DNA from: a virus | Length of the DNA: 64,000 nt | Strand: one strand, 5' to 3' | Virus record (IMG/VR): IMGVR_UViG_3300031851_002880 | Location: 23,459 to 87,458 of that record | Shown: positions 1-40,922 of the stretch, piece by piece | How positions within the stretch are numbered: position 1 is the first letter of the stretch | Layout: every line of letters starts with the position of its first letter | Made by a program: the position numbers and the translations under genes | Notes under the pieces: generated by a model | Databases searched by the model: none | What the model was told of the DNA's origin: nothing | Seen by the model: only the letters and a program-made list of their open reading frames with translations

Positions 1-1071
1 ATAAAAATATGCAATGTTACCTAACAAATTAAAACCATACCAACTTAGGAATAAACAAAACACTGTAACAAAAGGTACAATGTAAATTATGTTTTTAAGT
101 TTGTCTACTGTGTTATCCACACTAAACTGAAACCCGTTTTCCAACATCAAATAGTAAATTAATACTTCACTACCTGTAATCGGTATAGCCAAGATAAGCA
201 AAGGAAGCAATGAACTTAATGCGCCACTATTGTTCGCTGCCTCTGCGGCCGCTATGCTTTTCAGTATAGGCATACGAAAGAATCGTTTAACTATATTGGC
301 ACTAGCATAACTGCCAAGGATATTTGTTACACCAGGAATAAGACCGCACCAAAAACCTATAAAACTTCCTATAAGCGTTGGAATTGCTGTTCCTTTTCCT
401 ACTGCATACTTACTTATACGTTTAGGGGTGTCTACATTTAAATTATGAACCTTTGCAAGTTCAGGTACAATGTATAGACCAATCATTATACTTGCAAACG
501 GAATACCTAATGCAAGATAACTATTACCAAACGTAAGAAAACTATCGAATGTTATCGAATCTATTCCTACTTTAGCAAGAACACCACCTAGTAAGAATAG
601 TAGTAGAGTTGCTATTTTGTTTTGCTTTGTTAAAAACGTAATCATTAATATAGCAACTGCAATTATAATTGTTTGTATAATACTGTTATAGAACTTAAAT
701 AGATCTAAGACACGTGGTAATGCTAATATAAACACGGTTACAGCAAACATAACACCTACTGTACTGCTGATTGCGTTACTACTAACTGCTACACTGCCAA
801 AGCCTTTTCTAAATAGTCTATGCCCGTGTTTTGCTGTGCTTATAGCAGTAGCATCTCCCGGAATACCGTATAAGATTGCTGTAACGCTGTTTGTGTAGTT
901 CGATGTAATAAGGACGCTTACGTAGTACATCATTATGTTAACCGGTGCTGTTGACGCTAATAGAGGGTATAGCAACGCTGTTGCAATGAAAGGTCCTGCG
1001 CCTGGAATAATACCAAACACTGTTCCACTAACAATACCTATTACTGCCCACAATATTAGTTCTTCAATCAT
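1..1071 (-). CDS. TctA-type tripartite tricarboxylate transporter membrane subunit (partial)
   Basis: The 357 visible residues start at ATG 1071 and run off the left edge, so the C-terminus is missing; family members are usually about 500 residues. The protein is strongly hydrophobic and shows both halves of the TctA internal duplication. The first half has GIVSGTVFGIIPGAGP (about 12-27) followed by SVTAILYGIPGDATAIS. The second has GFWCGLIPGVTNILGS and then AAAEAANNSGALSSLLPLL, matching the family signatures around PGxGP and PEAANN. TctA is the large inner-membrane subunit that, with TctB and a periplasmic TctC receptor, imports carboxylates. No TctB or TctC is visible here. The start overlaps the end of the upstream radical SAM gene by 8 bases, so it belongs to the same transcript. 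Such a gene in a phage would be an auxiliary metabolic gene acting in the host membrane. The family assignment is firm; the substrate is unknown. Confidence 0.85.
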   Translation of the reverse strand, partial: MIEELILWAVIGIVSGTVFGIIPGAGPFIATALLYPLLASTAPVNIMMYYVSVLITSNYTNSVTAILYGIPGDATAISTAKHGHRLFRKGFGSVAVSSNAISSTVGVMFAVTVFILALPRVLDLFKFYNSIIQTIIIAVAILMITFLTKQNKIATLLLFLLGGVLAKVGIDSITFDSFLTFGNSYLALGIPFASIMIGLYIVPELAKVHNLNVDTPKRISKYAVGKGTAIPTLIGSFIGFWCGLIPGVTNILGSYASANIVKRFFRMPILKSIAAAEAANNSGALSSLLPLLILAIPITGSEVLIYYLMLENGFQFSVDNTVDKLKNIIYIVPFVTVFCLFLSWYGFNLLGNIAYFY

Positions 1072-2008
1072 ATTTTTCTACACTTCTATTAAGTTGAGTG
1101 TTAGGAGTAATCATATCTTTATCGTTATTTTTTATTTTTTTGCAATACTGTTTGCACACACTTGGACAAGTATTATAGTCTGTCAAGTAATTATTAAATG
1201 AATTAAAATAGTTTTCAAAGTTAATTATACTATTATCTTTAATATTAATCGGTGACCAAAATCCTTCTTCTTTATTATTATCTGCCCACCAACAGCAAGG
1301 ATAGTAATTGCCAAAAGCATCTATGTAATGCATATCTCCAGTCTTGCAGAAAGGACTAAGTGCTTCTTCATACTCTACTTTGGTGTTTGTAAACCATTCA
1401 GGATTGTCATACGATTTTATAATAGTTAACTTAGGATCTAAGAACCTTGTACGTTGTATCCTAAATTTATCAATACCAATTTTTTTTGCTAGATTTTTTG
1501 CTTCTTCTACTTGATGATAATTGTGTTCGAACACAATATACTTCCATTCTATTTTACACTTGCGTTTCTTTTTTGCAATCAGCTTAAACAGTTCTTGGAT
1601 CTTATTCCAATTACTATTAACCCGGTATAAATGGTTAGTGTCTTGTAGGCCATCAATACTTAATGTAATCTGAGAATTACTAGGCCATGTATCTAATACA
1701 CGCTCCCAAAATGGCAAACTTTGCATACCGTTAGTAGTTACATTTATATTCTGGGCGGCAAAAAAATGTTCACTAATATCATGAAACTGTGGATGATAAA
1801 CTGGATCGCCTAAGTTACCCTGAAAGAAAATATACTTAATTTCAGGAATTGTTTTTTTAGGAAAGAAGTCCTTTAAATGATCAATGTCGATGTCTAGCTT
1901 AGGATCTTTTACCATTGTATTGTAATGAATTGTCCGTAGACACGCCGGGCATGCCAATGGACAGCGCCGAGTTAATTCTAAATGCCATCCTACGTTATAA
2001 TTAACCAT
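1064..2008 (-). CDS. Radical SAM protein, HNxHQ paralogue family (copy 1)
   Basis: This 314-residue protein has the radical SAM cluster motif CPLACPAC at C16, C20 and C23. It is one of five paralogues in the window sharing the same landmarks: a GNLGDPVYHPQF segment, TNHLYR, and FEHNYHQVEEA. The C-terminal part carries further cysteines, including PCCWW and a final CPSVCKQYC, likely a SPASM or twitch-like auxiliary cluster site. Radical SAM enzymes reductively cleave S-adenosylmethionine to start radical chemistry; auxiliary clusters of this type usually go with peptide or small-molecule modification. The actual substrate cannot be read from the sequence. The ATG at 2008 overlaps the upstream oxygenase-like gene by 8 bases. 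Confidence 0.88.
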   Translation of the reverse strand: MVNYNVGWHLELTRRCPLACPACLRTIHYNTMVKDPKLDIDIDHLKDFFPKKTIPEIKYIFFQGNLGDPVYHPQFHDISEHFFAAQNINVTTNGMQSLPFWERVLDTWPSNSQITLSIDGLQDTNHLYRVNSNWNKIQELFKLIAKKKRKCKIEWKYIVFEHNYHQVEEAKNLAKKIGIDKFRIQRTRFLDPKLTIIKSYDNPEWFTNTKVEYEEALSPFCKTGDMHYIDAFGNYYPCCWWADNNKEEGFWSPINIKDNSIINFENYFNSFNNYLTDYNTCPSVCKQYCKKIKNNDKDMITPNTQLNRSVEKYD

Positions 2009-2663
2009 TAATAAGTTTTCTGTACTTGTCTGTTTGCTTTCCAGTAATCTTTAATATATTACGGGGCCATGGACCTGTGTTTGCTGTACTATGTGGAATG
2101 TTTGCCCAGTCAAACCAAATGATGTCCCCTGCTCTCCAAGGCGGTACGTAAGTATTGCCAAACTGTATAATGTGTCCTGGTGCCCAATCTTCTAGCATTA
2201 CAAACACTCTGCCCCATTCATCGTCTGTGGCTCTACTACTAGTTTGGTCTGTGCGTTCTTTACGCAATCCAGTAAGACTGTCAATGTGTAAGTGTAGCAT
2301 CATCCCTGTATGTTGCGTTTGTACATTAGTTTGTGCATTAGCAAGACCGATTTCTTCTGCAATGCTATGTAGTATAGGAGTTTCTTGTGTAGTTATCCAC
2401 TGTCTGTATACAACATAGTCTAAAGGAATGCCCCAGTCTTTACATAATAGTTCTTCATAATCGTAATTAAAACTATCGCCTTCAGGTGCTACCGGTGATG
2501 GCCAATAAAAGTCATATTGATTTGCATTTGCAATAGGTATTTCATCTTTCCAAGAAGGATACATGTTGGCTATTGTCTTAAAGCTCTTACCATGATCACT
2601 TTCACGAAATGGATTAAAGTCGTAGTTACTTTGCTCTACTGTTACTTCCCATCTGTTTTTCAT
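2001..2663 (-). CDS. Putative 2-oxoglutarate/Fe(II)-type oxygenase
   Basis: This 220-residue protein has the pattern of a double-stranded beta-helix iron oxygenase: LHLHID with H126 and D128 as an HxD pair, then AGDIIWFDWANIPHS with a distal H191, and R201 about ten residues later as a possible 2-oxoglutarate ligand. The spacing fits the 2OG-Fe(II) superfamily, whose members hydroxylate, desaturate or halogenate substrates. The assignment rests on these residues only; a non-oxygenase cupin remains possible. It starts four bases before the stop of the sulfotransferase-like gene and leads into a radical SAM gene. It is one of five HxD proteins between 2.0 and 8.6 kb. Confidence 0.65.
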   Translation of the reverse strand: MKNRWEVTVEQSNYDFNPFRESDHGKSFKTIANMYPSWKDEIPIANANQYDFYWPSPVAPEGDSFNYDYEELLCKDWGIPLDYVVYRQWITTQETPILHSIAEEIGLANAQTNVQTQHTGMMLHLHIDSLTGLRKERTDQTSSRATDDEWGRVFVMLEDWAPGHIIQFGNTYVPPWRAGDIIWFDWANIPHSTANTGPWPRNILKITGKQTDKYRKLING

Positions 2664-3280
2664 AATGCGTCTCTCAATTCTTTACACCAAGTGTTGACTT
2701 CTTGTATATTTGTTATATTGTAATCCGACTTTTGTTTTATAGGCAGACGTCCGTTGACTTTATAATTTTTTATATCATCGTAATACAAAATTTGTTCTAT
2801 ATTTGTAAAATAATTGTTTTTCATATCATTATATTTTACTATTTCGTCTGCTATTTCATTAAAACACGATTTAGGATAATTAAATTCTACAGTTTCTAGT
2901 TCTTGAGGTTTCCATACTGCCCATTTGTTTGTTTGTTTAGCAACACCCCAGCTAATTACTTGTTCAAATATATTATTTCTTTCAATAAGTGTTACTGGTT
3001 TATCTTTGACATATTTCCAAAATAAATCATCTACTTGAGCACTCATTGTAACCTTAACTATACTATTTTGATTTAACCATTTTAATCTTCGTTGTGTTTC
3101 TTTTTTTATAATATCCGGCGTTAAATTAGCAATACCAAGTTCTACACGCCAATCATAACCTGGTGTAAATGTTTCGCCTTGTTTTTGCACTATAGGCAAC
3201 GGATCATAAGCATATTCATTTAGAAACCAATTATAATAAAATGTTGTACCACTACGACTTGGACCGATTAGAATTTTCAT
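2660..3280 (-). CDS. Sulfotransferase-like P-loop protein
   Basis: This 206-residue protein opens with ILIGPSRSGTTF (residues 3-14), the 5'-phosphosulfate-binding loop typical of PAPS-dependent sulfotransferases. A second landmark is the segment LIERNNIFEQVISWGVAKQ (about 98-116), which matches the family pattern with an Arg and a downstream Ser contacting the 3'-phosphate. It is short for a sulfotransferase (usually 250 or more residues), so it may be a minimal form. It would transfer sulfate from PAPS to a hydroxyl or amine on a sugar, lipid or small molecule. It overlaps the upstream methyltransferase gene by 29 bases. A different P-loop transferase is the main alternative. Confidence 0.7.
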   Translation of the reverse strand: MKILIGPSRSGTTFYYNWFLNEYAYDPLPIVQKQGETFTPGYDWRVELGIANLTPDIIKKETQRRLKWLNQNSIVKVTMSAQVDDLFWKYVKDKPVTLIERNNIFEQVISWGVAKQTNKWAVWKPQELETVEFNYPKSCFNEIADEIVKYNDMKNNYFTNIEQILYYDDIKNYKVNGRLPIKQKSDYNITNIQEVNTWCKELRDAL

Positions 3281-4187
3281 GACTCATCTCCATAAATAAT
3301 CTCCACATAGGAGGTCTATATAAGTTGCAATGATCGTAATCTATTTTGTCAACTGACAACCCGACATGTTTTGCAAGTGTACTTGTTCCGTGTTCTGTAA
3401 TGTTAAAGTACCATGTGTACTTCCATTCTCTATCACAAAAAAAGTATGCTGAATTCTTTTGGGCATCATCTAAATCACCATGTAACCAAGTATGTGCGTG
3501 TATTGCATCAGGTTGGAATAGTTTGTAATAGTTATGATTATGGCTCCACAGTAACAATCCGTCTGGTGCTAAACATTCTTTTAATTTTTTCATGTTACGA
3601 TATTGTTCATCATAAGTATACCAATTCATACTGCCAAAACAAATAACAACGTCCCAAGTTTGTCCTTTAGGATCAAAGTCTGATTGCTTACACATAATGT
3701 CTGCTTCGGTCCTATATGGATCAACGCCAGTAACATTGTTTAAATGTTTTTTGTATTCGTTTACACCACAGCCCATATCAAGTATAGTTAAGTCTGGGCG
3801 TTCTTTTTGCATTGCTTGTAGTCTGTCTACAAGTGCTTGTCCTCGTATGTTCCACTTATTTGCAATAGGCTTGTGTTCAACATCTAATACTTCGCCAACT
3901 ACACCTGTGGTGCTTGTACCGTTTTCACCTACGAAGTAGTTGTGTTGATATTGCTTGTCAATTTCTTTTACAAAGTCGCCCATAGTTTTTCCATACCATT
4001 GATCAATTTGACCAAGATGAATTGGATGATGTGTATCTCTAACTTGCATTGAAAATTCTTGTTCACAAGCATCTATAAATTCTTGTGTAAAAGGTAGTTG
4101 ACTAATAACAGATTCCGGAGCAATGTTCCAACCGAACATTTCTTCAACCTTATTCCATATTAGTTTATTAAGTGGATTATTATACAT
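3252..4187 (-). CDS. Class I SAM-dependent methyltransferase
   Basis: This 311-residue protein has the Rossmann methyltransferase motif I, LTILDMGCGVNEY, at about 133-145, an acidic residue at the end of strand 2 (GVDPY, D156), and a motif IV/post-IV region WDVVICFGSMNWY followed by LAPDGLLLWSHNHNY. The first 130 residues match no domain I know. Methyl acceptor unknown. The resemblance to UbiE/MenG-like small-molecule methyltransferases is only at fold level. It overlaps the next gene (sulfotransferase-like) by 29 bases and starts 8 bases inside the upstream oxygenase-like gene, so the three are probably translated together. Confidence 0.8.
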   Translation of the reverse strand: MYNNPLNKLIWNKVEEMFGWNIAPESVISQLPFTQEFIDACEQEFSMQVRDTHHPIHLGQIDQWYGKTMGDFVKEIDKQYQHNYFVGENGTSTTGVVGEVLDVEHKPIANKWNIRGQALVDRLQAMQKERPDLTILDMGCGVNEYKKHLNNVTGVDPYRTEADIMCKQSDFDPKGQTWDVVICFGSMNWYTYDEQYRNMKKLKECLAPDGLLLWSHNHNYYKLFQPDAIHAHTWLHGDLDDAQKNSAYFFCDREWKYTWYFNITEHGTSTLAKHVGLSVDKIDYDHCNLYRPPMWRLFMEMSHENSNRSKS

Positions 4188-4941
4188 TTTCGTAATAGTA
4201 CCTTTCTATATGATCGATGCCTGCTTTTTTCCTAAATTCTTCTGTAAATATACCTTCGATCTTTAATCCAAAATTCCAATAAGGTAAACTTTCATGACTT
4301 CCGTGCCAATTCTGATGATTAAAGAAACCACTCATAGATTGTGCCTTATGTAGATTTTTTTCATCGTCCATAACGTACATTGTTTGTTCTGGATCCCAAT
4401 TAATCCAGGCAAATTCTTGCCTATGAGGATAGCATTCGTCCACAAGGTCGCAATCTCTGTGATAATTATTAGGTGCATTAGGACGTCTAATCAGTACAGC
4501 AAGTCGACCAATTTTTTCAAACACAGGTCCTTTTAAGGATTCTACCCACGCTTTATAATCATCCCACTCTTTAGGCAAATCTTTACGCCATGTTATGTTA
4601 TCCCAAACTTCGGCAGGTGTTTCTATACTATCATATACTATAGGAGAATTATTTTTTGAATCTGGCAAATAACCTTCATCATCTGTTAACATTAAAACAT
4701 AATAACTACAACGTGCCTTGCTCAATACTTCTATACTCCATGGATTATCGTGATGATATCCATTATTCTTTGCCCAATTTAAATCTTTGACACTGTTACC
4801 GTATTGATCTATTTGTCTTCCGTATACACCCCATCTAACTAAATCATAACTTTCTGCTAAGGCAGGAAGTGGATCTGGCATAGTATCTAAGGGCAGTAAA
4901 TGATCAAAAGATACTACCCATTCATTATTAATTGTTAACAT
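4180..4941 (-). CDS. Putative 2OG/Fe(II)-type oxygenase-like protein
   Basis: A longer reading frame begins at 5055, but the ATG at 4941 is preceded by GGAGG six bases upstream, leaves only a 14-base overlap with the upstream gene, and gives a 253-residue protein; I take it as the start. Residues H161 and D163 (NYHRDC) form an HxD pair, and H213 or H216 in the segment NHQNWHGSHE could be the distal ligand. The region LAVLIRRPNAPNNYHRD resembles the strand leading into the metal site in aspartyl/asparaginyl hydroxylase-like proteins. No clear 2-oxoglutarate-binding arginine is visible after the distal histidine, so function is less certain than for its neighbours. Confidence 0.55.
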   Translation of the reverse strand: MLTINNEWVVSFDHLLPLDTMPDPLPALAESYDLVRWGVYGRQIDQYGNSVKDLNWAKNNGYHHDNPWSIEVLSKARCSYYVLMLTDDEGYLPDSKNNSPIVYDSIETPAEVWDNITWRKDLPKEWDDYKAWVESLKGPVFEKIGRLAVLIRRPNAPNNYHRDCDLVDECYPHRQEFAWINWDPEQTMYVMDDEKNLHKAQSMSGFFNHQNWHGSHESLPYWNFGLKIEGIFTEEFRKKAGIDHIERYYYENV

Positions 4942-6739
4942 GTATTTCCTCCATTTTCCATCTATCATCAAATCTTCCAGCAATGTAGATAGTATTATAA
5001 TAATCTTCTTTATCTGTTTCTCTAGAATCGGAAAATGTCCAATTACCAGGTGCATAATTTTCTACCTGATATTCTATTTTTTGACTTGTTCCTTTCCACA
5101 TTGAGTAATAATCAATATCGATAAGTTCATGATATTGAGGGAAGCGTTCTTTCAAAACATCATGTATATTGTTCTTCAAATAATTAATATGTGATATTGC
5201 ATATTCAGGAAAGAAATAAAGCGGATCACTCATTATATTCCATCCATAATGGGTTTGGTTTTTGATTGCACTAAAATAATGATCTTTGCATTCTTGTTTG
5301 TGTTCATTAAACCAAGTTTTTGTTTGTAGGAATTTGTAACTTTCGTTTATCAAGGTAGATCTTTTTTCAATTCCTAGTGTGTGCAATGTGTTACAAGTAT
5401 TTTGTAAAATGCCATAAAAATATATCGGCTTATAAAAACTTTTTACTAAAAACAAACTTTCAAAAACATCATCTTCAGACATACTGCTTGTTGAAGTACA
5501 AATATTATCTGTAAATTTATCACCGTGATAGTGTTTTGTAAATCCTCGTATATTAGCCCAGTTTATTTCAAATTTTTCATTATATTCATTGCTACTAAAT
5601 TCTGCATTGTTTAACTTACTGAGTTGATTTATTTGAAACTTGTTAAAGGTATGCGGCAAGTCAATTAGTTCTTCCATACCGCCTTTAAAATTAGCGTATG
5701 TATCTCCTGGCATTGGAAAAACTAATTCTGTATACACAGCAATGTCTGATTCATTCATATCCTTGATAATATCACTCATTTCCTGTAATGTAAATGCATT
5801 AGTACGTTTTACATTATCAAGAGTTTGCTGATTTAAACTTTGTAAACTTAAACCAAATATACTATCTAGACCACCGTGTATAAGTTTCTTTGCACAACGT
5901 AGGACTCTATCACCCCTTGCCTTACTCCAGGTAGGCAAAAACTTACCTTTCCAATTATGTTTCTTTTTTAGATCAATTAAAGCATCAACAATTTCTTCAT
6001 CTCTATCGAAGATGCCAAAGTTTGCATCAGCTACATCAATTACTGTCACTCCATTTTTTACAATCCATTCTAATTCATCAAGAACACGGTGCATACCAAA
6101 TTTCTTTACTTTTGCATATGCTGTGCTGCCTATATCACAAAATGTGCAACTGTAAGGACATCCTCTGTTACTCTCAAATACACATCTAACAGTACGTGTT
6201 TCATCACGTTTGTTTTCTACTAAGTTGCCGAAAAACCCATTTAGATATGGACTAGGTACTTCTTCTAAATTAATAGTGTTACGCTTGCGATTGTAAAAAT
6301 CTTTTGTTATAATACCCTCAACTTCTAAAAAATCCTTGGTTTGTAAATTTGTTTTAAGCACATCAACTAATACTTCTTCTCCATAATACGGAATTAGTAT
6401 ATCGACATGATTGTGCTGTTGCATCCATTCTACAGAATACTTAGGTTCAGGACCTCCTACAATAACAAGACATTGAGGATATTTGTTTTTTATTTCTTTT
6501 AAGGCAATATTTGTACGTTCCCAATTCCAAATATAACAGCTACATAATATAACATCAGGATCAACTATTTCATCTATAACAGTTTCTGCATCTTCGTTTT
6601 CCCAAAATGTTTTTACCATTTTATAAGAATTGTTTATAGATTCAAATTGTTGGGCATAACTCCACAGTGTACCAATTGCTTGTGGCAAGGTAGCACTAGG
6701 ATACCAATTAGATAATTGAATTGCGTATACATTATTCAT
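4928..6739 (-). CDS. B12-binding-domain radical SAM protein (copy 1)
   Basis: The frame is open from 6811, but ATG 6739 gives a product starting MNNVYAIQLSNWYPS, similar to its paralogue, with an 8-base overlap onto the upstream gene. The 603 residues comprise an N-terminal cobalamin-binding-like Rossmann domain (about 1-130; DPDVILCSCYIWNW and LVIVGGPEPKYS) and a radical SAM domain with CPYSCTFC at C194, C198 and C201. The C-terminal 250 residues match no domain I know. Class B radical SAM enzymes of this layout often methylate unactivated carbons or rearrange rings using cobalamin, but the N-terminal domain lacks an obvious DxHxxG, so base-off B12 binding is not assured. Paralogue of the gene at 9054-10907. 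Confidence 0.85.
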   Translation of the reverse strand: MNNVYAIQLSNWYPSATLPQAIGTLWSYAQQFESINNSYKMVKTFWENEDAETVIDEIVDPDVILCSCYIWNWERTNIALKEIKNKYPQCLVIVGGPEPKYSVEWMQQHNHVDILIPYYGEEVLVDVLKTNLQTKDFLEVEGIITKDFYNRKRNTINLEEVPSPYLNGFFGNLVENKRDETRTVRCVFESNRGCPYSCTFCDIGSTAYAKVKKFGMHRVLDELEWIVKNGVTVIDVADANFGIFDRDEEIVDALIDLKKKHNWKGKFLPTWSKARGDRVLRCAKKLIHGGLDSIFGLSLQSLNQQTLDNVKRTNAFTLQEMSDIIKDMNESDIAVYTELVFPMPGDTYANFKGGMEELIDLPHTFNKFQINQLSKLNNAEFSSNEYNEKFEINWANIRGFTKHYHGDKFTDNICTSTSSMSEDDVFESLFLVKSFYKPIYFYGILQNTCNTLHTLGIEKRSTLINESYKFLQTKTWFNEHKQECKDHYFSAIKNQTHYGWNIMSDPLYFFPEYAISHINYLKNNIHDVLKERFPQYHELIDIDYYSMWKGTSQKIEYQVENYAPGNWTFSDSRETDKEDYYNTIYIAGRFDDRWKMEEIHVNN

Positions 6740-7268
6740 ACTTAAAGTTCTCTGTGTTTGTCCAAATAGTATTGTTGTCAATTTTTTTAAATAAGTTATC
6801 TGTCCAGTCAAATAAATCCATCATTAATACCCAACGAGGTGCAGTATCTTCACGTTTGCGTGGCACTGCATGTAACATACGTGTGTTGAATATAGTTGGC
6901 TTGTCCATTGTAAATTGTTCTACAGGATGATTAAATTGGTCATAATAATATTGCGGACTATTACTAAAGTCTCCTAGTAACGGAATTCCAAAATTTCCCC
7001 ATTTACGATGATCAATATGATTAACTAATCCACCAGGCTTTACACTACTCAAAAAGAAACTAGGACGTTTAAATTCTGCATTTAATCCTTGATATATTTC
7101 ATCTAATATAGGAAATTGTTCTATACTAATAGAAAGTTCTTGTACATTCCATTCTAACCCATTCTGGTCATAACCGTCTTTCCATTCAGTTGCTTTTGCA
7201 TAATCAATAATATCATTAAAGACAGATGGATCATATTGTAAATTTAATTTTCGGTGATACCAATTCAT
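6732..7268 (-). CDS. Putative 2OG/Fe(II)-type oxygenase (hydroxylase-like)
   Basis: The 178-residue protein contains VNHIDH, with H84 and D86 as the HxD pair, then NTRMLHAVPRKRED with a distal H133 and R145 twelve residues on. This layout fits small aspartyl/asparaginyl hydroxylase-like or phytanoyl hydroxylase-like 2OG oxygenases. The start codon shares one base with the stop of the upstream gene (TAATG), so translation is probably coupled. It is third in a row of three HxD proteins (7903-8544, 7268-7906, 6732-7268), transcribed just before a B12 radical SAM gene. The substrate is unknown. Confidence 0.65.
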   Translation of the reverse strand: MNWYHRKLNLQYDPSVFNDIIDYAKATEWKDGYDQNGLEWNVQELSISIEQFPILDEIYQGLNAEFKRPSFFLSSVKPGGLVNHIDHRKWGNFGIPLLGDFSNSPQYYYDQFNHPVEQFTMDKPTIFNTRMLHAVPRKREDTAPRWVLMMDLFDWTDNLFKKIDNNTIWTNTENFKYE

Positions 7269-12015: not shown

Positions 12016-12021
12016 GACTAC

Positions 12022-12049: not shown

Positions 12050-12052
12050 CCT

Positions 12053-19330: not shown

Positions 19331-19338
19331 AACTGTAC

Positions 19339-23145: not shown

Positions 23146-23150
23146 ATCTT

Positions 23151-29214: not shown

Positions 29215-30244
29215 AACTATCAGGAATAATAAGTTTATTACTCCAATCAATTCCTTTTCGATTTGCAGGATGCTCGTTGTTTATAATCACAATACTTTTG
29301 TCTTTTGTATGTGTTACACACTTTTGCGGGTCAACAAATAATAATAGTTCAAATATATCACCTAAGAATTCTTTTTCTATATGTATACTAATACCACTAT
29401 ACGCACACTTGCTTGGCAATTCTTCCATTGGTAAGTTGCATTGTAGTAAATCAAATTTATTAAATAGCCCTTTAGTACGATCAAAGAATTTAAAGTTTAA
29501 CATGTCCGTATGCACTTTGCAGTCAGTTGGATTGTTTACTACCATAGGCAAACTTCTAAACACTAAATCACTCCATTGATCTAATTTAATTTGTGTAAAG
29601 CCTTCAAAGTTTGTTGGCATAAGTTTTTCGGGCCAAGCGTCAGAACCTAAAAATTCGTATGTAAAGTCTTTGGTTGTTTTACCAGTATCTACACTGTTAA
29701 CAAATAAACGTTCCTCAACTTCTGTTCTAAACAATATTGTATCGCTACTCAGTAAACTTTTGCGCAATGTTTCTTCATCAGTTATTACAACACCTTTATC
29801 ACGTAGTTCTTTAAATGCATTTTGTTCTTTATGTACAGTAAGCATTAAAGGCATTGTCTTACAATTAAGAAACTTTGCTGCTACACACCTATTGGTTCCG
29901 GGATGAACCATATATGTTCCATCGTCCATATGATTTACTGCCTTGACACTATTCTTCCATCCGGTCTGACAATAGCTTTGTACTAACCAAAGTATTTTTT
30001 CAAAATGATGTACAACTATGTTTTCACCGCCCATTGGTGTAATTAATGCTTTAACTGAAAAATCTTCAACTACACTTTTTGCAATACTCTTATCACCATG
30101 CGGATTTTCTAACAGCCAATCATGTAATCTATCTTCGTCAAACTTTAGCCACCAACGTAATGTCTCCATTGGTGCTTCAAATAATATTACAACGTGGTCA
30201 TCAAACCAATCTTTATCAAAGAAATCTTTACCTTGAGTAGACAT
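29198..30244 (-). CDS. Conserved-looking hypothetical protein with a weak ParB-like segment
   Basis: I do not recognise a family with confidence for this 348-residue protein. One segment, YMVHPGTNRCVAAKFL followed by MPLMLTVHK (about 110-140), resembles the G-x-R-xxAA core of ParB/sulfiredoxin-like nucleotide-binding proteins, but the resemblance is short. The rest has no clear motif, no signal peptide and no membrane segment. A one-base gap separates it from the upstream twitch-type radical SAM gene, and it overlaps the SPASM gene downstream by 17 bases. Confidence 0.6.
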   Translation of the reverse strand: MSTQGKDFFDKDWFDDHVVILFEAPMETLRWWLKFDEDRLHDWLLENPHGDKSIAKSVVEDFSVKALITPMGGENIVVHHFEKILWLVQSYCQTGWKNSVKAVNHMDDGTYMVHPGTNRCVAAKFLNCKTMPLMLTVHKEQNAFKELRDKGVVITDEETLRKSLLSSDTILFRTEVEERLFVNSVDTGKTTKDFTYEFLGSDAWPEKLMPTNFEGFTQIKLDQWSDLVFRSLPMVVNNPTDCKVHTDMLNFKFFDRTKGLFNKFDLLQCNLPMEELPSKCAYSGISIHIEKEFLGDIFELLLFVDPQKCVTHTKDKSIVIINNEHPANRKGIDWSNKLIIPDSYVSKF

Positions 30245-30245
30245 A

Positions 30246-31361
30246 TTACTCTCCTAATAATAGTGTGTTTAGTTCAGGAAATACTTGTGCAAAATTTTCT
30301 TCCCTGTGTTTATCTAATATATGCGTATATTTAAAGAAACTATCAATTGCTCCGTTGCAATTAGACATTTGATCTGCAAATGGTTTGAATTTATCATTGC
30401 TAAGTTTATCTTTAATTACTTGATGTGCATGTTGAGGTATTGCTTGCACATTATAGTGCTTAGGCCCATGTAGTGCGTTTAAGAACAACCGGTCTTCAGG
30501 AAGACCAAGTGTGTTAAACCATTGTTGAAATTCTGGCAAATATAATATATTAAAAATATTTACAGTGTGGCAAATACTTGTGTGCAAGAACGGTTGTTCA
30601 TTTGCAAAACGCAGATTACTTTCAGCTTCTTTCCAAACTGCTGGATGACGTTGGTATTCAAACTGTTTGCCTGTGCCGTCAATACTAAACATAAGTTCAA
30701 CCCATTTAAATTCTTTCCAAAGATCTAACATTTTTTGTGTGGGCTTTATTGTAGTATTAGTATTATAGTGTAAACTAATTTTATGTGCATGACCTCTTTC
30801 TACACACTTTTCTAATAATTCAAAATGTTTCTTAATTAATAAAGGTTCACCGCCTGTGAAATCTAGCCATTCAATATACTCAATTACTCTTTCAAGGTCA
30901 CGCCAAATAGGACTATTATCTTCTATCCAGTAACTTTTAAGGTTAGGATTAAGAACTTCTCCGTATAATAATTTTTCATCTTCGGCCCATTTGAAACTGC
31001 TAAAGCTACTACATATTCTGCACTTTAAATTACACACTGTTCCTAGCTTTAGATCATAATAGATAGGCGGACCTAGTTTTCCAATCCTATGAAACATATG
31101 TTCAAAGCGTTCATTATCTGCTTGACGTTTACTACGTATACCCTGCGATTCGTTTTTCCAACATTGGTTACAACCAGCAGGTTTCTTTCCTGCTAAGAAA
31201 TCTTTGCGCAATGTTTTCATTTCTTCACTAGACCAGATTTTGCTTAGACCGTCTGTGCCAAAGTGTCCTACAGGCGGGCCTTCATATAAGCAACAAGGCT
31301 TTGCATTGCCTACTGCATCAGCTTCAATATGTATCCAAGGATTTATACAAATATCACTCAA
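30246..31361 (-). CDS. Radical SAM protein with N-terminal twitch-like region (copy 3), TTG start
   Basis: The start codon is TTG at 31361, five bases after a strong AGGAG; no ATG is nearby. The 371-residue product begins MSDICINPWIHIEADAVGN, with C5, C23-C24 and C64/C67 (GCNQC) before the radical SAM motif CNLKCRIC at C110, C114 and C117, then FTGGEPLLI and FEYQRHPAVW. It ends REENFAQVFPELNTLL, the tail shared by most copies. It overlaps the upstream SGNH gene by eight bases. Confidence 0.87.
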   Translation of the reverse strand: MSDICINPWIHIEADAVGNAKPCCLYEGPPVGHFGTDGLSKIWSSEEMKTLRKDFLAGKKPAGCNQCWKNESQGIRSKRQADNERFEHMFHRIGKLGPPIYYDLKLGTVCNLKCRICSSFSSFKWAEDEKLLYGEVLNPNLKSYWIEDNSPIWRDLERVIEYIEWLDFTGGEPLLIKKHFELLEKCVERGHAHKISLHYNTNTTIKPTQKMLDLWKEFKWVELMFSIDGTGKQFEYQRHPAVWKEAESNLRFANEQPFLHTSICHTVNIFNILYLPEFQQWFNTLGLPEDRLFLNALHGPKHYNVQAIPQHAHQVIKDKLSNDKFKPFADQMSNCNGAIDSFFKYTHILDKHREENFAQVFPELNTLLLGE

Positions 31362-32055
31362 TTGCGCTCCTAACCATAGGGTATATATATTCGTCTGCTA
31401 CAAGTTTGTGTCCTTGAGGTGATATATGATAACCATTGTCAATGTAATGATTATTATCTAAAAAGTTGTGTACACTATCTTGATGTACCGGTACTGGTAG
31501 TACTTTTTCTACATCTATAGGCGTTGGTACCCACGGAAAGAATATAATCTTGTCACCAAAGTTTTCTATATAAGATTTAAGCATATCTAGTTGACACATT
31601 AATTGTTCGGTAGCCAATGTACTAAATGTATGATTTTCGTATAAGAATTTTGTAGTAGTGTCAATATCACTTTTCTTACTTAAACTATTAGAGTATTCAC
31701 CTACAGTAATCTTGTGTGTCTTTTCTTCTGTTATTCCCCAAAGGCGTGTATGCTTGCCTTCTCGTGTCCATACTGGTTGTTCTAGATTGTCATGAAATCG
31801 GTTGTCTAGAAAATTTTTCTTACCACTAATAGATATTTGCATTCTATCAAATGTAGTTAACTGAAACAAAACAACTTTTGGTTTATACTTTTGGTAAAGT
31901 CTATATGCTGAGTATACTGCATACGCATTGTCTATGCCGGCATGTCCGCCATTTATAACTGTTGTTCCGCACTTGTCTTGTAGATAAGCCGAAAAAGTTT
32001 CATTTGATTCTACACCAGTACCAAACGTCCAGCTGCATCCAATAGTAAGTATCAT
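31354..32055 (-). CDS. SGNH/GDSL-type hydrolase-like protein
   Basis: The 233-residue protein starts MILTIGCSWTFGTG with nucleophile S8, has INGGHAGIDNAYA (block II Gly37 and block III N43), and ends with NGYHISPQGHKLVADEY, where H210 is the likely catalytic histidine. No signal peptide is seen, so the enzyme would act in the cytoplasm. An acyl transfer or hydrolysis on a glycan or lipid intermediate is the likely role. It sits between two twitch-type radical SAM genes, overlapping each by four to eight bases. Confidence 0.75.
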   Translation of the reverse strand: MILTIGCSWTFGTGVESNETFSAYLQDKCGTTVINGGHAGIDNAYAVYSAYRLYQKYKPKVVLFQLTTFDRMQISISGKKNFLDNRFHDNLEQPVWTREGKHTRLWGITEEKTHKITVGEYSNSLSKKSDIDTTTKFLYENHTFSTLATEQLMCQLDMLKSYIENFGDKIIFFPWVPTPIDVEKVLPVPVHQDSVHNFLDNNHYIDNGYHISPQGHKLVADEYIYPMVRSAIE

Positions 32056-33242
32056 TTTACCAAGTCCTGTAATTCAGGAAATGTTTCTGCAAAATTTTCA
32101 TTCCTAATTATGTCTACCATTTCTATGTTTTTCTTAAACTCTAGTATTAGATGAGATGTATCTGCATCATTCATAAATTTTGCAACTGATAAGAATCCAC
32201 GCTCAACTCTTTCTTCGCCCCATCTCTTACACTTTTCTGCCATATCTGTATATTTTTTAGTTAATTCTTTTTTCATGCTTGCAGGTAGTATTTGTAAACT
32301 TAGATGCTCAGGATGATGGACAATGTTAATATGAAAGTCTCTTGGGTGTCCTATAAAGTTATCTTCTAATGCCCATTCGTAGAAATCTGTCATATGAAAT
32401 GCATTTTGTACACTAACTGTAAAGTTAATAAAAAAGTTTATATCAGGTGCTTTTTGTATTATTGCTTTTCTATTAGCAACAATCTTATTCCAGTCAGTGC
32501 CTTTACGTATATATTCTGCTCTTGCGCCGTAGCCATCTATACTTGCTCCTACATGTACGTTATCAAATCTAGGCCAAATGTCAAGAACATCAAGTTTTTT
32601 GTATCTTAACTGGCTAAGATTAGTATTATAACGAATGATAGTATCGTACTTTTGCATTTCATCTAGTTTATTTAAGATACGGTAATGTTCTTCCATTAGT
32701 AATGGCTCGCCGCCAGCAAAATAAATATCTTCTACTTTATCAAATAACGGTTCTATTTGATTCCACATGTTAATATTTTTACCTGGGTCAGGTAAGTCAT
32801 TAGGTAATTGACCCCACATCTTTTTTTGATCTTCGTACCAACCTGTACTTAACTGTGGACCGCAACTTCTGCAACGCATATTACATATATTAGAAAATCT
32901 AAAGTCCCAGTAGTGTATACTTAAATCGTCTAAACTTCCGTCAGCATTTGTTGTTTGTAATAGATCCATATGATGTGAAAAAGTCTCATTCATATGTGTA
33001 CGCAAACTTGTTCCGCCGTTTGATTCATTAATAAAGCAACGTTTACAACTTGCCGGTTGTTCATTGTTAAGAAACTGTGTACGTAGCTTTTTCATATCCT
33101 TGCCATTCCAAATTTCAGCAAGAGTATTTTCATTTAGATTACCGACTGAATCTTCCATTGCTGTTAAGCAACAAGGATATACATCGTTGTTAGGCCATGT
33201 ATGTAAATGTATCCACGGTGATATGCATTTGTTGTCAGTCAT
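32052..33242 (-). CDS. Radical SAM protein with N-terminal twitch-like region (copy 4)
   Basis: The 396-residue protein begins MTDNKCISPWIHLHTWPNND with C6, C24-C25 and C66/C69 (SCKRC) ahead of the radical SAM motif CNMRCRSC at C120, C124 and C127. FAGGEPLLMEEHYRIL is the SAM-contacting segment, and YIRKGTDWNKI is shared with its relatives. It ends RNENFAETFPELQDLV. The ATG is eight bases inside the next-upstream gene. Confidence 0.88.
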   Translation of the reverse strand: MTDNKCISPWIHLHTWPNNDVYPCCLTAMEDSVGNLNENTLAEIWNGKDMKKLRTQFLNNEQPASCKRCFINESNGGTSLRTHMNETFSHHMDLLQTTNADGSLDDLSIHYWDFRFSNICNMRCRSCGPQLSTGWYEDQKKMWGQLPNDLPDPGKNINMWNQIEPLFDKVEDIYFAGGEPLLMEEHYRILNKLDEMQKYDTIIRYNTNLSQLRYKKLDVLDIWPRFDNVHVGASIDGYGARAEYIRKGTDWNKIVANRKAIIQKAPDINFFINFTVSVQNAFHMTDFYEWALEDNFIGHPRDFHINIVHHPEHLSLQILPASMKKELTKKYTDMAEKCKRWGEERVERGFLSVAKFMNDADTSHLILEFKKNIEMVDIIRNENFAETFPELQDLVK

Positions 33243-34680
33243 ATGTTGCTAGAGGCTCATCAATATTTTTTGGATCTGGCTTTAGTATCCAACCTTCTTT
33301 TTCTGCAAGTTCCATAATACTTGCATCAGTGTCTGGAATACTTTCAACCCAGTCTGTTAGTATTTTAGGAAATACACTTAGGCTTTTGTTCCTACGTACA
33401 TCATATTGCTGATAGAAAGTTTTAAAGTCACGCCACAACGTAGCAGGGTTACTTGTACGCCTATGCGGAGCATCTACTGTAACTAGGTAATCTATCAAAC
33501 GTTCAATACTTGCCTTTTCAAACTCGTGCCATAATTCTTTGTCTTTGTTTGCTGCATACCAAGTAGATAAATTTTTGTGGAGTTCATCTTTAATATGGTT
33601 AGGTAAAGCAAGTGGTGACTGAAAGCTAGGAAATCTCAAAAGGTTAACACTTACACTTGGCCATTTACTTCCTGTTGTTTCTTTCAATTCATATATTTGA
33701 TCTAAGAAATCTGTAATACTAAACAAGCATAAACTATTAATAGTCATCATTACATGTAGATTTGCATTTGCTTCTGACAATATACGCTTTACATTGTTTA
33801 ACCATTGTTCATAAACTAGCCCGTCACGTATATATTCTGCTTGAGCACCTACAGCTTCACAACTTGTATAAATTTCAAAGTTCTTAATACCATGCGACTT
33901 TTGTATAAGTTTATCTATTATATCATTCTTAGCAATTAGATTACTATTAATTGCAAAACGCATCTTGCTATTTTGTGCTTCAAACCAATCAAACAATTTC
34001 CAAGTGTTATGGCTCATTAAAGGCTCGCCGCCTGTAATGCGTAGTTCTTCTAAACTACTGCTAAGTCCGTTTTCCCACCATTTCCAAAATGCTTGAATGT
34101 AAGGATTATCGTCATCATCTTTGTAAGGTTGTGTCCAACTGCCGTCTTGTCTAAATGCACCAGCACCATCACTTACTAAGTTTGTGTACTCGCCATTCTT
34201 TTTAATATCTTTAGCCCATGTGGTTGAGAAACTTGCATTACAATAACTACATGCTAAGTTACACGTTCTGTCAAACGCAATTTCAAAAGTTTTGAGGTGA
34301 ACATTTTCTGTGTAGTTCATATCGTATGCACGTTGTAATTCGTCGTCATCATAGATAATAGTTTTAAAGACTCTGTCACTAACAGCATCTTTTTTCATAT
34401 CTTCCATTTTCCAACAATACTCACACTCACGTGGTCGTTGTCCAACTTGCATTTGCTTACGCATTTCTTTTTTGTGCTTTGTGTTGTGTATAGCAGTAAA
34501 GTCTGCTTCAACTTCTTCAAGCGGTATTTTGTGTGCCGGCGGGTGATGACAACTTGTAGTAGTGCCGCTACCTAACCATGTAGTTGCATTATACCATTTA
34601 GCACCACAGAAGCTAGGACTTTTAGCGTTAATAACTCTGTCTCTATACTCTGTTAAACTTTCGTCGGGTTTCTTAGGCAT
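33235..34680 (-). CDS. Radical SAM protein with N-terminal twitch-like region (copy 5, HHPP type)
   Basis: The 481-residue protein starts after a GAGGA ribosome site and has C25, C44 (SCHHPPAHKIP) and C86/C89 (ECEYC) before CNLACSYC at C140, C144 and C147, then RITGGEPLM. EYIRDGLVYEQWLNNVKRI aligns with the same block in copy 6, immediately upstream. The C-terminal RNKSLSVFPKI is a weakened version of the family tail. The HHPP block with a shortened cysteine spacing sets copies 5 and 6 apart as a recent tandem pair. Confidence 0.87.
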   Translation of the reverse strand: MPKKPDESLTEYRDRVINAKSPSFCGAKWYNATTWLGSGTTTSCHHPPAHKIPLEEVEADFTAIHNTKHKKEMRKQMQVGQRPRECEYCWKMEDMKKDAVSDRVFKTIIYDDDELQRAYDMNYTENVHLKTFEIAFDRTCNLACSYCNASFSTTWAKDIKKNGEYTNLVSDGAGAFRQDGSWTQPYKDDDDNPYIQAFWKWWENGLSSSLEELRITGGEPLMSHNTWKLFDWFEAQNSKMRFAINSNLIAKNDIIDKLIQKSHGIKNFEIYTSCEAVGAQAEYIRDGLVYEQWLNNVKRILSEANANLHVMMTINSLCLFSITDFLDQIYELKETTGSKWPSVSVNLLRFPSFQSPLALPNHIKDELHKNLSTWYAANKDKELWHEFEKASIERLIDYLVTVDAPHRRTSNPATLWRDFKTFYQQYDVRRNKSLSVFPKILTDWVESIPDTDASIMELAEKEGWILKPDPKNIDEPLATYD

Positions 34681-36046
34681 TCCAGTCCTCTAATATTTCT
34701 CTATATTCAGGAAACACTTTCCTAAAGTTTTTTCTTCTACGTTTATCGTATGCTTGTATGTATCTTACAAAATCCTGTCTATGTTCAATAGCTGGCTCAG
34801 AATTACGTAAATAATCACAGAACCTTTTTATTTGATCCCACTCTTCTAAATAAAGTCTAGCAAACTTATCTGGGCTATGATACTTTAACCAACTTTCACA
34901 GGTAGACTCAATTGCACTTGCATATAGTTCTCTATCCTCAGTATCTAAGAGTGTGCATTGTAAATGCGGTGGCCACCGCATAATGTTTATGCTTAGAGGT
35001 ATCCTATTATATTCAAACGCTTTGTTATACTTTTTTCTAAAGTCCATTACTACGTTAATAAATTTCTCAAATGTTGGCAATGCTAATATGTTTATAGTTG
35101 TCATCATTGCTACTGAACTGTCAGTTTGGTCTAATACTTGTTCTACGTTTGTTATCCATTGTGCATAGTCTAACCCATCACGCGAGTATTCTGCTTGCTC
35201 ACCAATACTTTCTAAACTTGTGTACACATCTATTTTTTTGACTTTACCTTTTAGTTTGTTAATTGACTCTATCAACTTTGTTATTAGTTTATCAGGAACA
35301 CACAAGTTTGTGTTTATTGCTATTTCTAAATTAGGCTGTGGATTTTCTACTAGCATGTCTAGAAGTTTCCATGTTTCTTTACTCATTGTAGGTTCGCCGC
35401 CAGTAATACGCAACACCTTTAAATGAGGTAACGCATCAGGAAACCATTTCCAAAAGGCCTTAACGTAAGGATTTACTTCACTGTTAAGGTAAGGAAACTT
35501 TTGTGTCTTTTTGAGATAACTTAGATCATGTGATCCGTGCTTTGTAGGATAAGATCCGTTTTGCTGTATATCTTCCATCCACTTACTGCTAATTTCAGGT
35601 GAACAGTATGAACATGCAAAGTTACATGCATTAGAAAAACTTACTTCTAAGTAACTTGGATATGTATTTTCATTAGGATTTGATTTTGCAATTTCATCAA
35701 ATCTATCCCATGCCCAATAGTCGGCTGTCTTATAGTGTCTGTCACTAAAGTAATTTTTATCTAAGTCTTCTATGTTCCAACAGTAATCACACTCTTTTGG
35801 ACGTTCTCCGTTCAGCATCATTTCACGCTGTTTCTTTTTGTGTTTACTATTGTGTAGTGCATGTGGATTACCCATTATTTCACTAATAGGTATTTTATGA
35901 GGAGCAGGATGGTGACAACTATGATTATATCCGTTTTGCAAGTATAATGTAGTTTGTAACCACTTAGCTGTACAGAAACTACAACTTACAGAATTTATCT
36001 GTTTCCGTTTCTGCTCAAGTAATTCGATGCGCTTTTCATTACTCAT
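34673..36046 (-). CDS. Radical SAM protein with N-terminal twitch-like region (copy 6, HHPP type)
   Basis: The 457-residue protein has C22, C25, C44 (SCHHPAPHKIP) and C86/C89 (ECDYC), then CNFACSYC at C141, C145 and C148, RITGGEPTMSKETW and EYSRDGLDYAQWI. It ends RRRKNFRKVFPEYREIL. It is clearly the sister of copy 5 along its whole length. It overlaps the glycosyltransferase-like gene upstream by four bases, linking radical chemistry to the sugar genes on the transcript. Confidence 0.87.
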   Translation of the reverse strand: MSNEKRIELLEQKRKQINSVSCSFCTAKWLQTTLYLQNGYNHSCHHPAPHKIPISEIMGNPHALHNSKHKKKQREMMLNGERPKECDYCWNIEDLDKNYFSDRHYKTADYWAWDRFDEIAKSNPNENTYPSYLEVSFSNACNFACSYCSPEISSKWMEDIQQNGSYPTKHGSHDLSYLKKTQKFPYLNSEVNPYVKAFWKWFPDALPHLKVLRITGGEPTMSKETWKLLDMLVENPQPNLEIAINTNLCVPDKLITKLIESINKLKGKVKKIDVYTSLESIGEQAEYSRDGLDYAQWITNVEQVLDQTDSSVAMMTTINILALPTFEKFINVVMDFRKKYNKAFEYNRIPLSINIMRWPPHLQCTLLDTEDRELYASAIESTCESWLKYHSPDKFARLYLEEWDQIKRFCDYLRNSEPAIEHRQDFVRYIQAYDKRRRKNFRKVFPEYREILEDWNA

Positions 36047-40917: not shown

Positions 40918-40922
40918 CGTAG

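What the first reader, a model, noticed from the sequence alone, without database searches (positions are those of the whole stretch)
1064..36046. Sixteen radical SAM enzymes in 35 kb of phage-like DNA
Sixteen proteins with a CxxxCxxC radical SAM motif lie between 1064 and 36046, all on one strand and almost all overlapping. They fall into at least five architectures (HNxHQ short type, N-terminal twitch type, B12-binding type, SPASM-like CNYxCxYC type, classical SPASM). Each gene costs a phage genome space, so the number and diversity imply a multistep radical pathway or a set of enzymes each acting on a different target. I know of no described phage system with this many. The product is unknown.
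Basis: partly seen in the sequence, partly recalled or inferred. Interest (0 to 1): 0.92.

Follow-up and report, generated by a model that had tools for sequence, protein, structure and literature searches.

The report
Phage surface-tailoring island rich in radical enzymes
A marine T4-like phage carries, right after its tail-fibre genes, a swappable block of about 39 genes with 16 radical-SAM enzymes and at least seven sugar-attaching enzymes, probably for altering surface sugars or proteins; similar but smaller blocks were already known in other phages, and what they make is still unknown.

Summary
Sixteen radical SAM (rSAM) proteins with intact CX3CX2C motifs lie on the minus strand at 1064-36046, in five families: 6 N-twitch, 5 'HN', 2 CNY, 2 B12-type, 1 SPASM. 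The record is an 87-kb fragment of a T4-like virus. It is not a bacterial chimera: the same gene order recurs in independent virus records, which carry up to 18 rSAM genes.

'No described phage system with this many' is largely wrong. Campylobacter phages CP220 and CPt10 carry 11 and 12, a T4-like ocean genome 12, Aeromonas phage 332-Vera 8, and rSAM cassettes are reported in pelagimyophage host-recognition islands.

New here: the rSAMs are ancient paralogues (about 20-38% identity), under purifying selection, inside a ~39-gene island between the tail fibres and a TctA/TctC-like pair. The island has seven glycosyltransferases, a UDP-sugar dehydrogenase and oxygenase-like genes. Tail-fibre genes have late-type promoters; the island's first gene has a consensus sigma-70 promoter, recurrent in relatives, suggesting its own, probably early, transcription. 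Unrelated cultured phages (Phosso, Atu_ph07, SURPRISE13) put other rSAM cassettes beside tail-fibre or virion-structural genes.

Best reading (0.4): swappable enzymes remodelling the infected cell's surface glycans. Main rival (0.27): modification of the phage's own tail fibres.

The parts
48188..63523 (-). giant virion protein (>=5111 aa, runs towards the contig end), landmark upstream of the tail fibres; VrlC-like by position
   Evidence: ORF; distant tblastn matches to 'virion structural protein' of T4-related phages and to many cyanophages
47559..48164 (-). conserved 201-aa virion-region protein, late-type promoter motif 27 nt upstream
   Evidence: phrog_11259 E=3e-71; 56% identical to the gene at the same place in Sinorhizobium phage Phosso; motif
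41862..47548 (-). three paralogous tail-fibre-like proteins (45473-47548, 43401-45467, 41862-43361)
   Evidence: paralogy and homologues in 53-58 contigs; homologue at the same place in Phosso
39671..41852 (-). two small paralogous fibre-like proteins (40923-41852, 39671-40882)
40909..40917 (-). late-type promoter motif CATAAATA, 34 nt upstream of gene 39671-40882; similar motifs at 43392 and 48191
   Evidence: TAAATA 15-50 nt upstream of 50/109 tail-fibre genes against 7/475 other cassette genes in relatives
39631..39659 (-). sigma-70 consensus promoter TTGACA-17-TATACT heading the island
   Evidence: 11/12 match; >=10/12 in 17/36 orthologous sites against 19/584 other sites, Fisher p=6e-14
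39257..39607 (-). first gene of the island, 116 aa, unknown
   Evidence: homologues in 54 contigs; followed by the GT8-like gene in 48/48 contigs with sequence to judge
37572..39264 (-). two GT8-family glycosyltransferases (38407-39264, 37572-38435)
   Evidence: profile matches glycogenin, E=3e-7
36962..37579 (-). 205-aa protein, unknown, always followed by the GT-A gene in relatives
   Evidence: 29/29
36043..36969 (-). GT-A fold glycosyltransferase-like (paralogue of 21508-23145)
   Evidence: AlphaFold pLDDT 85; Foldseek matches are nearly all GT-A glycosyl- or nucleotidyltransferases, best E=4e-4, low TM
34673..36046 (-). rSAM 1, N-twitch family
   Evidence: PF04055 35 bits; NF033640 331 bits
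33235..34680 (-). rSAM 2, N-twitch family
   Evidence: PF04055; CNLACSYC, GGEP
32052..33242 (-). rSAM 3, N-twitch family
   Evidence: NF033640 411 bits
31354..32055 (-). SGNH/GDSL-like (GCSW motif only)
   Evidence: sequence motif; no Pfam hit
30246..31361 (-). rSAM 4, N-twitch family
   Evidence: PF04055 + N-terminal SPASM
29198..30244 (-). unknown 348-aa protein, always beside rSAM 5
   Evidence: 7/7 adjacency
28357..29250 (-). rSAM 5, classical rSAM/SPASM
   Evidence: PF04055 + PF13186 56 bits
24297..28375 (-). three GT-B fold glycosyltransferase-like paralogues (27395-28375, 25276-26595, 24297-25286) and an SGNH-like gene (26592-27404)
   Evidence: AlphaFold pLDDT 90 for 27395-28375; Foldseek hits GT-B enzymes such as alpha-1,3-fucosyltransferase and exostosin, best E=6e-4, low TM
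23164..24297 (-). UDP-glucose/GDP-mannose 6-dehydrogenase
   Evidence: PF03721 E=1e-19, PF00984 E=5e-16
21508..23145 (-). GT-A-like protein, larger paralogue of 36043-36969
   Evidence: 36% identity
20607..21551 (-). methyltransferase-like protein (by eye, no Pfam hit)
   Evidence: homologues in 34 contigs
20396..20620 (-). conserved small ORF, 74 aa, TTG start, overlapping both neighbours
   Evidence: found in 7 contigs, conserved along its whole length; no match in cultured phages
17286..20403 (-). rSAM 6-8, 'HN' family (19339-20403, 18281-19330, 17286-18284)
   Evidence: PF04055; alignment A2 with invariant CX3CX2C and C-terminal PCC...CxxxC
15890..17296 (-). rSAM 9, N-twitch family
   Evidence: PF04055 + N-terminal SPASM
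14731..15903 (-). rSAM 10, CNY type
   Evidence: PF04055 43 bits
13665..14741 (-). rSAM 11, N-twitch family
   Evidence: PF04055 50 bits; NF033640 191 bits
12724..13665 (-). rSAM 12, 'HN' family with SPASM
   Evidence: PF04055, PF13186
12053..12727 (-). PP-loop ATPase, QueC-like C-terminus (weak)
   Evidence: PF06508 18 bits, below cut-off; homologues beside rSAMs in Bdellovibrionota islands
10876..12015 (-). rSAM 13, CNY type
   Evidence: PF04055 52 bits; 63% identical in Halobacteriovoraceae locus L199
9054..10937 (-). rSAM 14, B12-binding
   Evidence: PF02310, PF04055; nearest family KedN5 194 bits, cut-off 700
8501..9070 (-). redoxin-like
   Evidence: PF08534 E=1e-15
6732..8559 (-). three 2OG-Fe(II)-oxygenase-like proteins (7903-8559, 7268-7906, 6732-7268), each with HxD...H
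   Evidence: profile of 7268-7906 matches a beta-hydroxylase, E=8e-4; the other two by motif only
4928..6811 (-). rSAM 15, B12-binding (true start probably downstream of the TTG)
   Evidence: PF02310, PF04055
4180..5055 (-). oxygenase-like (HRD...H by eye), start uncertain
   Evidence: motif only
3252..4187 (-). SAM-dependent methyltransferase
   Evidence: PF13489 E=3e-8
2660..3280 (-). sulfotransferase-like P-loop (PSRSGTT), motif only
   Evidence: sequence; no Pfam hit
2001..2663 (-). 2OG-oxygenase-like (HID...H), motif only
   Evidence: sequence
1064..2008 (-). rSAM 16, 'HN' family; distal end of the island
   Evidence: PF04055 23 bits; phrog_21308 E=9e-26
1..1071 (-). TctA-like membrane protein (continues outside the window), distal boundary of the island
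   Evidence: L004:8238-9530 (by eye); similar TctA-like and TctC-like genes end the cassette in G046

Best explanation
The block 1064-39607 is an accessory island in the adsorption region of a marine T4-like virus. It is inserted between the tail-fibre genes and a TctA/TctC-like pair. Shown: 39 genes on one strand plus a small ORF, with its own sigma-70-type promoter motif, seven glycosyltransferase-like proteins, a UDP-sugar 6-dehydrogenase, a methyltransferase, five oxygenase-like proteins (four by motif only), and 16 rSAM enzymes of five families. Inferred: it is transcribed early by host RNA polymerase. The glycosyltransferases build or extend glycans on the host envelope from nucleotide sugars, including a uronate from the dehydrogenase. 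The rSAM and oxygenase enzymes then individually tailor sugar or peptide positions, for example by epimerisation, dehydrogenation, decarboxylation or C-methylation. The infected cell surface becomes unrecognisable to competing phages or stops adsorbing progeny. The enzymes are swapped as modules because the surfaces and competitors keep changing, which is why so many different ones accumulate.
For: Glycosyltransferases: GT8 by profile, GT-A and GT-B folds by AlphaFold/Foldseek; UDP-glucose dehydrogenase. The 'HN' rSAM profile's best solved relative is the sugar-nucleoside enzyme cytosylglucuronate decarboxylase BlsE, E=4e-9, and the N-terminal N-twitch domain matches BtrN, an aminoglycoside enzyme by general knowledge. 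A sigma-70 promoter motif heads the island in 17/36 relatives against 19/584 elsewhere, while tail-fibre genes have late motifs. Tail fibres stay 95-100% identical between window and sister G002 while genes 4180-10937 are replaced by 38-85% homologues. Purifying selection. The same co-occurrence (GTs and rSAM cassettes) and a host-surface role for the GTs were proposed for pelagimyophage islands (PMC7029224). CP220's rSAM module also has two sugar-transferase-like genes.
Against: No substrate is known for any of the enzymes. In 13/36 relatives the island head has a late-type motif instead. The rSAM cassettes of Phosso, Atu_ph07 and SURPRISE13 show no annotated or Pfam-detected glycosyltransferase. 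The N-twitch core's best solved match is the peptide enzyme SkfB. The Pfam tally of cellular neighbours shows only a slight excess of sugar genes (GT2 4/123; not among the 25 commonest families in the control). 'Early' rests on promoter consensus alone, and the 36 promoter sites are related by descent.
Confidence: 0.4

Rival explanations
1. The island modifies the phage's own adsorption apparatus. Glycosyltransferases, oxygenases and rSAM enzymes put glycans and unusual residues on the tail fibres or the giant virion protein, giving chemical diversity to receptor binding.
For: The position next to tail-fibre or virion-structural genes recurs in unrelated phages: Phosso and Atu_ph07 (T4-like; giant protein, tail fibre, cupin-like gene in Phosso, rSAMs), SURPRISE13 (other lineage; virion protein, cupin, rSAMs, 2OG oxygenases); 332-Vera has 8 rSAM among tail-fibre genes. 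Those cassettes look like protein-modifying sets without glycosyltransferases. rSAM/SPASM and aspartyl-hydroxylase-like enzymes are typical protein modifiers (general knowledge). Late motif at the island head in 13/36 relatives.
Against: In the window's own lineage the island has a sigma-70-type promoter motif separate from the late tail-fibre promoters. Cassette modules change while the tail fibres stay nearly identical. Multi-rSAM islands of the same families exist in Bdellovibrionota contigs with no tail genes seen nearby.
Confidence: 0.27
2. The island is a recombination hot-spot whose genes have separate, unrelated benefits; there is no single pathway or product.
For: Gene order breaks into modules with adjacency near 1 inside and low between; counts vary from 0-4 in relatives chosen by capsid gene to 18 in others; a TctA/TctC-like pair sits at the end.
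Against: The content is strongly biased to one enzyme superfamily plus glycosyltransferases and oxygenases. The core order is stable in tens of records. The HN / N-twitch / CNY trio recurs in L199 in a Halobacteriovoraceae contig (41-63% identity).
Confidence: 0.13
3. The island makes a small molecule or a ribosomal peptide natural product.
For: B12-rSAM proteins nearest to the KedN5 methyltransferase family; rSAM/SPASM, methyltransferase and oxygenase mix; one conserved small ORF, 74 aa, between a methyltransferase-like gene and an rSAM.
Against: No leader/core-like peptide elsewhere: almost no intergenic space, and the 74-aa ORF is conserved along its whole length. No peptidase, exporter or immunity gene recognised by Pfam in the scanned part. 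NCBIfam peptide-maturase models are not met.
Confidence: 0.1
4. General metabolic help at low oxygen, as suggested for CP220 (PMC2853527).
For: Authors' suggestion.
Against: The window virus has no mark of an anaerobic setting: it carries five oxygenase-like genes (four by motif only), and no rSAM gene scanned matched a metabolic equivalog at its cut-off.
Confidence: 0.05

Closest known systems
Interchangeable rSAM module of Campylobacter phages CP220/CPt10 (PMC2853527)
   Same: Cluster of five rSAM genes with sugar-transferase-like genes near baseplate genes (gp5/PAAR); replaced as a block between related phages; 11-12 rSAM per genome.
   Different: Fewer genes; includes an amidinotransferase; the rSAM found related to the window is only about 25% identical over 75%; no comparably large GT8/GT-B set annotated.
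Host recognition cluster (HRC) of pelagimyophages (PMC7029224)
   Same: Hypervariable island beside tail fibres, with glycosyltransferases and 'radical SAM' gene cassettes.
   Different: The capsid protein of the sister record is nearest to jumbo T4-likes (Vibrio 2.275.O 71%, Phosso 69%), not pelagimyophages; the gp14 flank was not found in the record.
T4-like ocean genome TARA_ERS488813_N000010 with 12 rSAM genes (PMC5332604)
   Same: Marine T4-like virus with many rSAM genes.
   Different: Noted as Fe-S metabolism (with iron-sulphur assembly genes); arrangement not compared here.
rSAM cassettes of Phosso, Atu_ph07 and phiKZ-like Burkholderia phages
   Same: Placed beside tail-fibre or virion-structural genes; rSAM plus cupin and 2OG genes.
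   Different: The rSAMs compared (Phosso) have no close homologue in the window; no glycosyltransferases recognised.
Multi-rSAM loci in Bdellovibrionota MAGs (L184, L189, L195, L203)
   Same: Same N-twitch family throughout, with HN, B12 and QueC-like genes in L184/L195 and CNY in L184/L189/L203, up to 12 rSAM in 21 kb.
   Different: In bacterial MAG contigs (up to 937 kb), genes on both strands, no tail-fibre homologues seen.

Membership tests
Radical SAM superfamily | Radical_SAM domain with CX3CX2C | tested here: met
   16/16; four below the Pfam cut-off but with intact motif
N-twitch rSAM (NF033640) | score over the curated cut-off (170 bits) | tested here: met
   13665 (191), 32052 (411), 34673 (331) met; 15890, 30246, 33235 grouped by sequence only
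KedN5 B12-rSAM C-methyltransferases (NF033712) | score over cut-off 700 | tested here: not met
   194-195 bits; nearest family, not a member
T4-like myoviruses | gp23-type major capsid protein | tested here: met
   Not on this fragment; present in sister records G001 and G002, which share 95-100% identical tail-fibre genes
T4-like myoviruses | late promoter motif (N)ATAAATA | tested here: met
   27-40 nt upstream of three tail-region genes and three left-arm genes
Pelagimyophage host recognition cluster | lies between VrlC and gp14 | tested here: inconclusive
   A giant virion protein is at one side, VrlC identity not proven; gp14 not identified in the record
Pelagimyophage host recognition cluster | virus belongs to the pelagimyophages | tested here: not met
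   gp23 of G002 closest to jumbo T4-like phages
CP220-like interchangeable rSAM module | several rSAM genes replaced en bloc between close relatives | tested here: met
   Genes 4180-10937 (two rSAM among them) replaced by 38-85% homologues in G002 between flanks of 95.7% and 99.7%
CP220-like interchangeable rSAM module | amidinotransferase in the module | tested here: not met
   None among the Pfam hits of the island
RiPP gene cluster | short precursor peptide with leader and variable core beside the maturase | tested here: not met
   Only one conserved small ORF, uniformly conserved

The most novel reading that the evidence does not exclude
The island is a dedicated viral system for radical tailoring of surface structures: many rSAM enzymes, each swappable, write a changing chemical code on glycans or proteins of the infected cell (or of the virion) as part of competition between phages for hosts. 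Unrelated phage lineages and predatory bacteria would use variants of the same system.
Probability: 0.25. Interest if true: 0.85.

Novelty: new member of a known kind. Interest (0 to 1): 0.55.

Why it matters
Phages with many rSAM genes have been called 'highly unusual' since 2010 without an explanation. This case shows that such cassettes recur beside tail-fibre or virion-structural genes in several unrelated phage lineages, that the enzymes are old, selected and individually exchangeable, and that in this lineage the block has its own sigma-70-type promoter motif. That turns an oddity into a testable question: are they acting on the host surface or on the virion? Cultured phages with such cassettes exist on laboratory hosts (S. 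meliloti phage Phosso, A. tumefaciens C58 phage Atu_ph07). If the surface reading is right, marine viruses hold a large untapped set of sugar- or protein-modifying radical enzymes: 50 N-twitch groups under 42% identity were seen in this small sample.

Tried and rejected
Bacterial-island chimera: rejected (sister records, repeated gene order). Recent tandem duplication as source of the number: rejected (paralogues about 20-38% identical, six separate N-twitch clades). RiPP precursor scan: only one conserved small ORF. Genome-contig scan with a single protein found nothing; the first alignment was too diverse; the second gave 78 bacterial loci, of which L155, L161, L191, L192 and L197 look like phage contigs binned in MAGs and were left out of the tally. 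Pfam tally of cellular neighbours against a far-flank control was nearly uninformative. PHROGs gave no name to nine of ten non-rSAM proteins scanned from 25276-48164; one PHROG batch failed on a wrong coordinate. A late-only expression model was dropped after the sigma-70 site was found. 332-Vera is not in the local collection. Gene-order fractions come from loci mostly chosen by one rSAM gene, so counts far from it are biased; fractions were therefore computed only where at least 3 kb of sequence followed. The sigma-70 site was picked from a scan of the window before it was tested in relatives.


Full report
Observation. The window is bases 23459-87458 of an 87,458-bp linear virus record. PF04055 gives 16 matches, all minus strand; per-protein scans agree. 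All 16 have intact CX3CX2C. By sequence they form five families: N-twitch (6), 'HN' type (5), CNY type (2), B12-binding (2), SPASM (1). In an alignment of 15 N-twitch proteins the N-terminal cysteines (C6, C24, C25, C66, C69), CX3CX2C and GGE are invariant. In the HN family CX3CX2C and a C-terminal PCC...CxxxC are invariant. A 17th, QueE-like protein lies outside the window.

Not chimeric, not duplicated. Three sister records (G001, G002, G003) carry the same genes at 92-100% identity over most of the block; G001 and G002 carry gp23, the T4-type capsid gene. Paralogues in the window are about 20-38% identical while each has its own orthologues elsewhere. The six N-twitch proteins sit in six exclusive clades spanning 5-43 contigs, five with support of 0.93 or more; the sixth (13665) has 0.33. 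dN/dS against the nearest orthologue below 97.5% identity is 0.02-0.36 for 15 of the 16; dS could not be computed for one, and several dS values are saturated. So these are old, selected, distinct enzymes.

Island anatomy. Reading along the minus strand: giant virion protein (48188-63523), 201-aa protein, five fibre-like genes (39671-47548), then 39 genes from 39257-39607 to 1064-2008, then a TctA/TctC-like pair (L004:7455-9530). Two proteins are GT8 (profile against glycogenin, E=3e-7). Two are GT-A-like and three GT-B-like by AlphaFold and Foldseek on one member of each group. The models are confident (pLDDT 85 and 90), but the Foldseek TM-scores are low, so only the fold class is claimed. 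There is a UDP-sugar 6-dehydrogenase, a methyltransferase, a redoxin, a beta-hydroxylase-like 2OG enzyme and four more with HxD...H by eye. HN rSAMs are nearest in the PDB to BlsE. The N-twitch core is nearest to SkfB, and its N-terminal domain matches the auxiliary-cluster domain of BtrN.

Modules. In relatives, gene adjacency is near 1.0 inside blocks (39257>38407>37572; 36962>36043; 31354>30246; 29198>28357>27395; 17286>15890) and 0.1-0.5 at many junctions between them. Between the window and G002 the genes 4180-10937 are replaced by homologues of 38-85% identity, next to genes of 95.7% on one side and 99.7% on the other, while the tail fibres stay 95-100% identical. G046 holds 18 rSAM genes in 49.5 kb between the same landmarks: the fibres and GT8 pair on one side, TctA/TctC-like genes on the other. 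Relatives chosen by capsid gene instead have 0-4 rSAM, so a high count is not a fixed trait of the clade.

Promoters. (N)ATAAATA, the T4-type late motif, lies 27-34 nt upstream of three tail-region genes in the window and 36-40 nt upstream of three left-arm genes. In relatives, 50/109 tail-fibre genes have TAAATA 15-50 nt upstream against 7/475 of the remaining cassette genes. The first island gene instead has a sigma-70-type promoter (>=10/12) in 17/36 distinct sites, against 19/584 elsewhere (Fisher p=6e-14). In another 13/36 it has a late-type motif, and no site has both. In the window it is TTGACA-17-TATACT. Caveats: the sites are related by descent, so the p-value overstates independence; the site was noticed in the window first; and consensus is not expression. 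The plain inference is that the island is its own transcription unit, early-type in this lineage.

Elsewhere. The same place beside the tail fibre holds rSAM cassettes in Sinorhizobium phage Phosso, where the 201-aa protein is 56% identical and the fibre is homologous but the rSAMs are not close, and in Agrobacterium phage Atu_ph07. Burkholderia phage SURPRISE13 has rSAM, cupin and 2OG genes next to virion structural genes. One Phosso rSAM is 54-56% identical to those of Burkholderia phages FLC6, FLC8 and SURPRISE13, which suggests exchange between lineages. Bacterial N-twitch relatives are mostly single genes, but some Bdellovibrionota contigs have up to 12 rSAM of the same families in 21 kb.

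Prior art. CP220 (11) and CPt10 (12) with an interchangeable five-rSAM module (PMC2853527; CP220 recounted); TARA_ERS488813_N000010 with 12 (PMC5332604); pelagimyophage HRC with rSAM cassettes and glycosyltransferases (PMC7029224); 332-Vera with 8 in the tail-fibre cluster (PMC12390700); rSAM enriched in Tasman Sea viromes (PMC7150976). The kind is therefore known; this is an unusually large, well-resolved member.

Mechanism. Glycosyltransferases, a uronate source, sugar-enzyme-like rSAMs, an early-type promoter, and cassette change without fibre change favour host-surface glycan remodelling (0.4). The placement beside virion genes and glycosyltransferase-free cassettes in other phages favour virion modification (0.27). 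The two cannot be separated by sequence alone. Shown: genes, families, selection, modular exchange, promoter motifs. Inferred: timing, substrates, benefit.

Noticed in passing
20396-20620 (-): Conserved 74-aa ORF with TTG start, overlapping the end of a methyltransferase-like gene and the start of an HN rSAM gene; in 7 contigs, no match in cultured phages.
   Followed up: partly
L004:7455-9530 and window 1-1071: TctA-like and TctC-like genes (tripartite transporter without an evident TctB) end the island; similar genes end the cassette in G046. Assignment by eye.
   Followed up: partly
L003:1438-9630 (left arm of the record): GTP cyclohydrolase (phrog_2197) and QueE-like rSAM (phrog_2076), plus a protein with a TGT/DpdA-like GDSGGFQ motif not confirmed by PHROGs: possible 7-deazaguanine DNA modification. 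The QueE-like protein reads GCNFRCMNFG, so the third cysteine of CX3CX2C is missing.
   Followed up: partly
9285-9313 (-): Perfect 12/12 sigma-70 consensus with TG extension inside gene 9054-10937, about 215 nt upstream of gene 8501-9070: possible internal promoter.
   Followed up: no
L184, L189, L195, L203: Bdellovibrionota contigs with 8-12 rSAM genes of the same families and, in L184/L195, QueC-like genes, in 13-21 kb; function unknown.
   Followed up: partly
L155, L161, L191, L192, L197: Contigs filed under bacterial MAGs in the GTDB collection that look like phage contigs related to this virus.
   Followed up: no
L188:5462-6538 and L134:17246-18307: Amidinotransferase-like genes among rSAM genes both in a Bdellovibrionia contig (by eye) and in Campylobacter phage CP220 (annotated).
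   Followed up: no
L304, L306: Cultured phages Phosso and Atu_ph07 carry rSAM cassettes just downstream of the tail-fibre gene: tractable models.
   Followed up: yes
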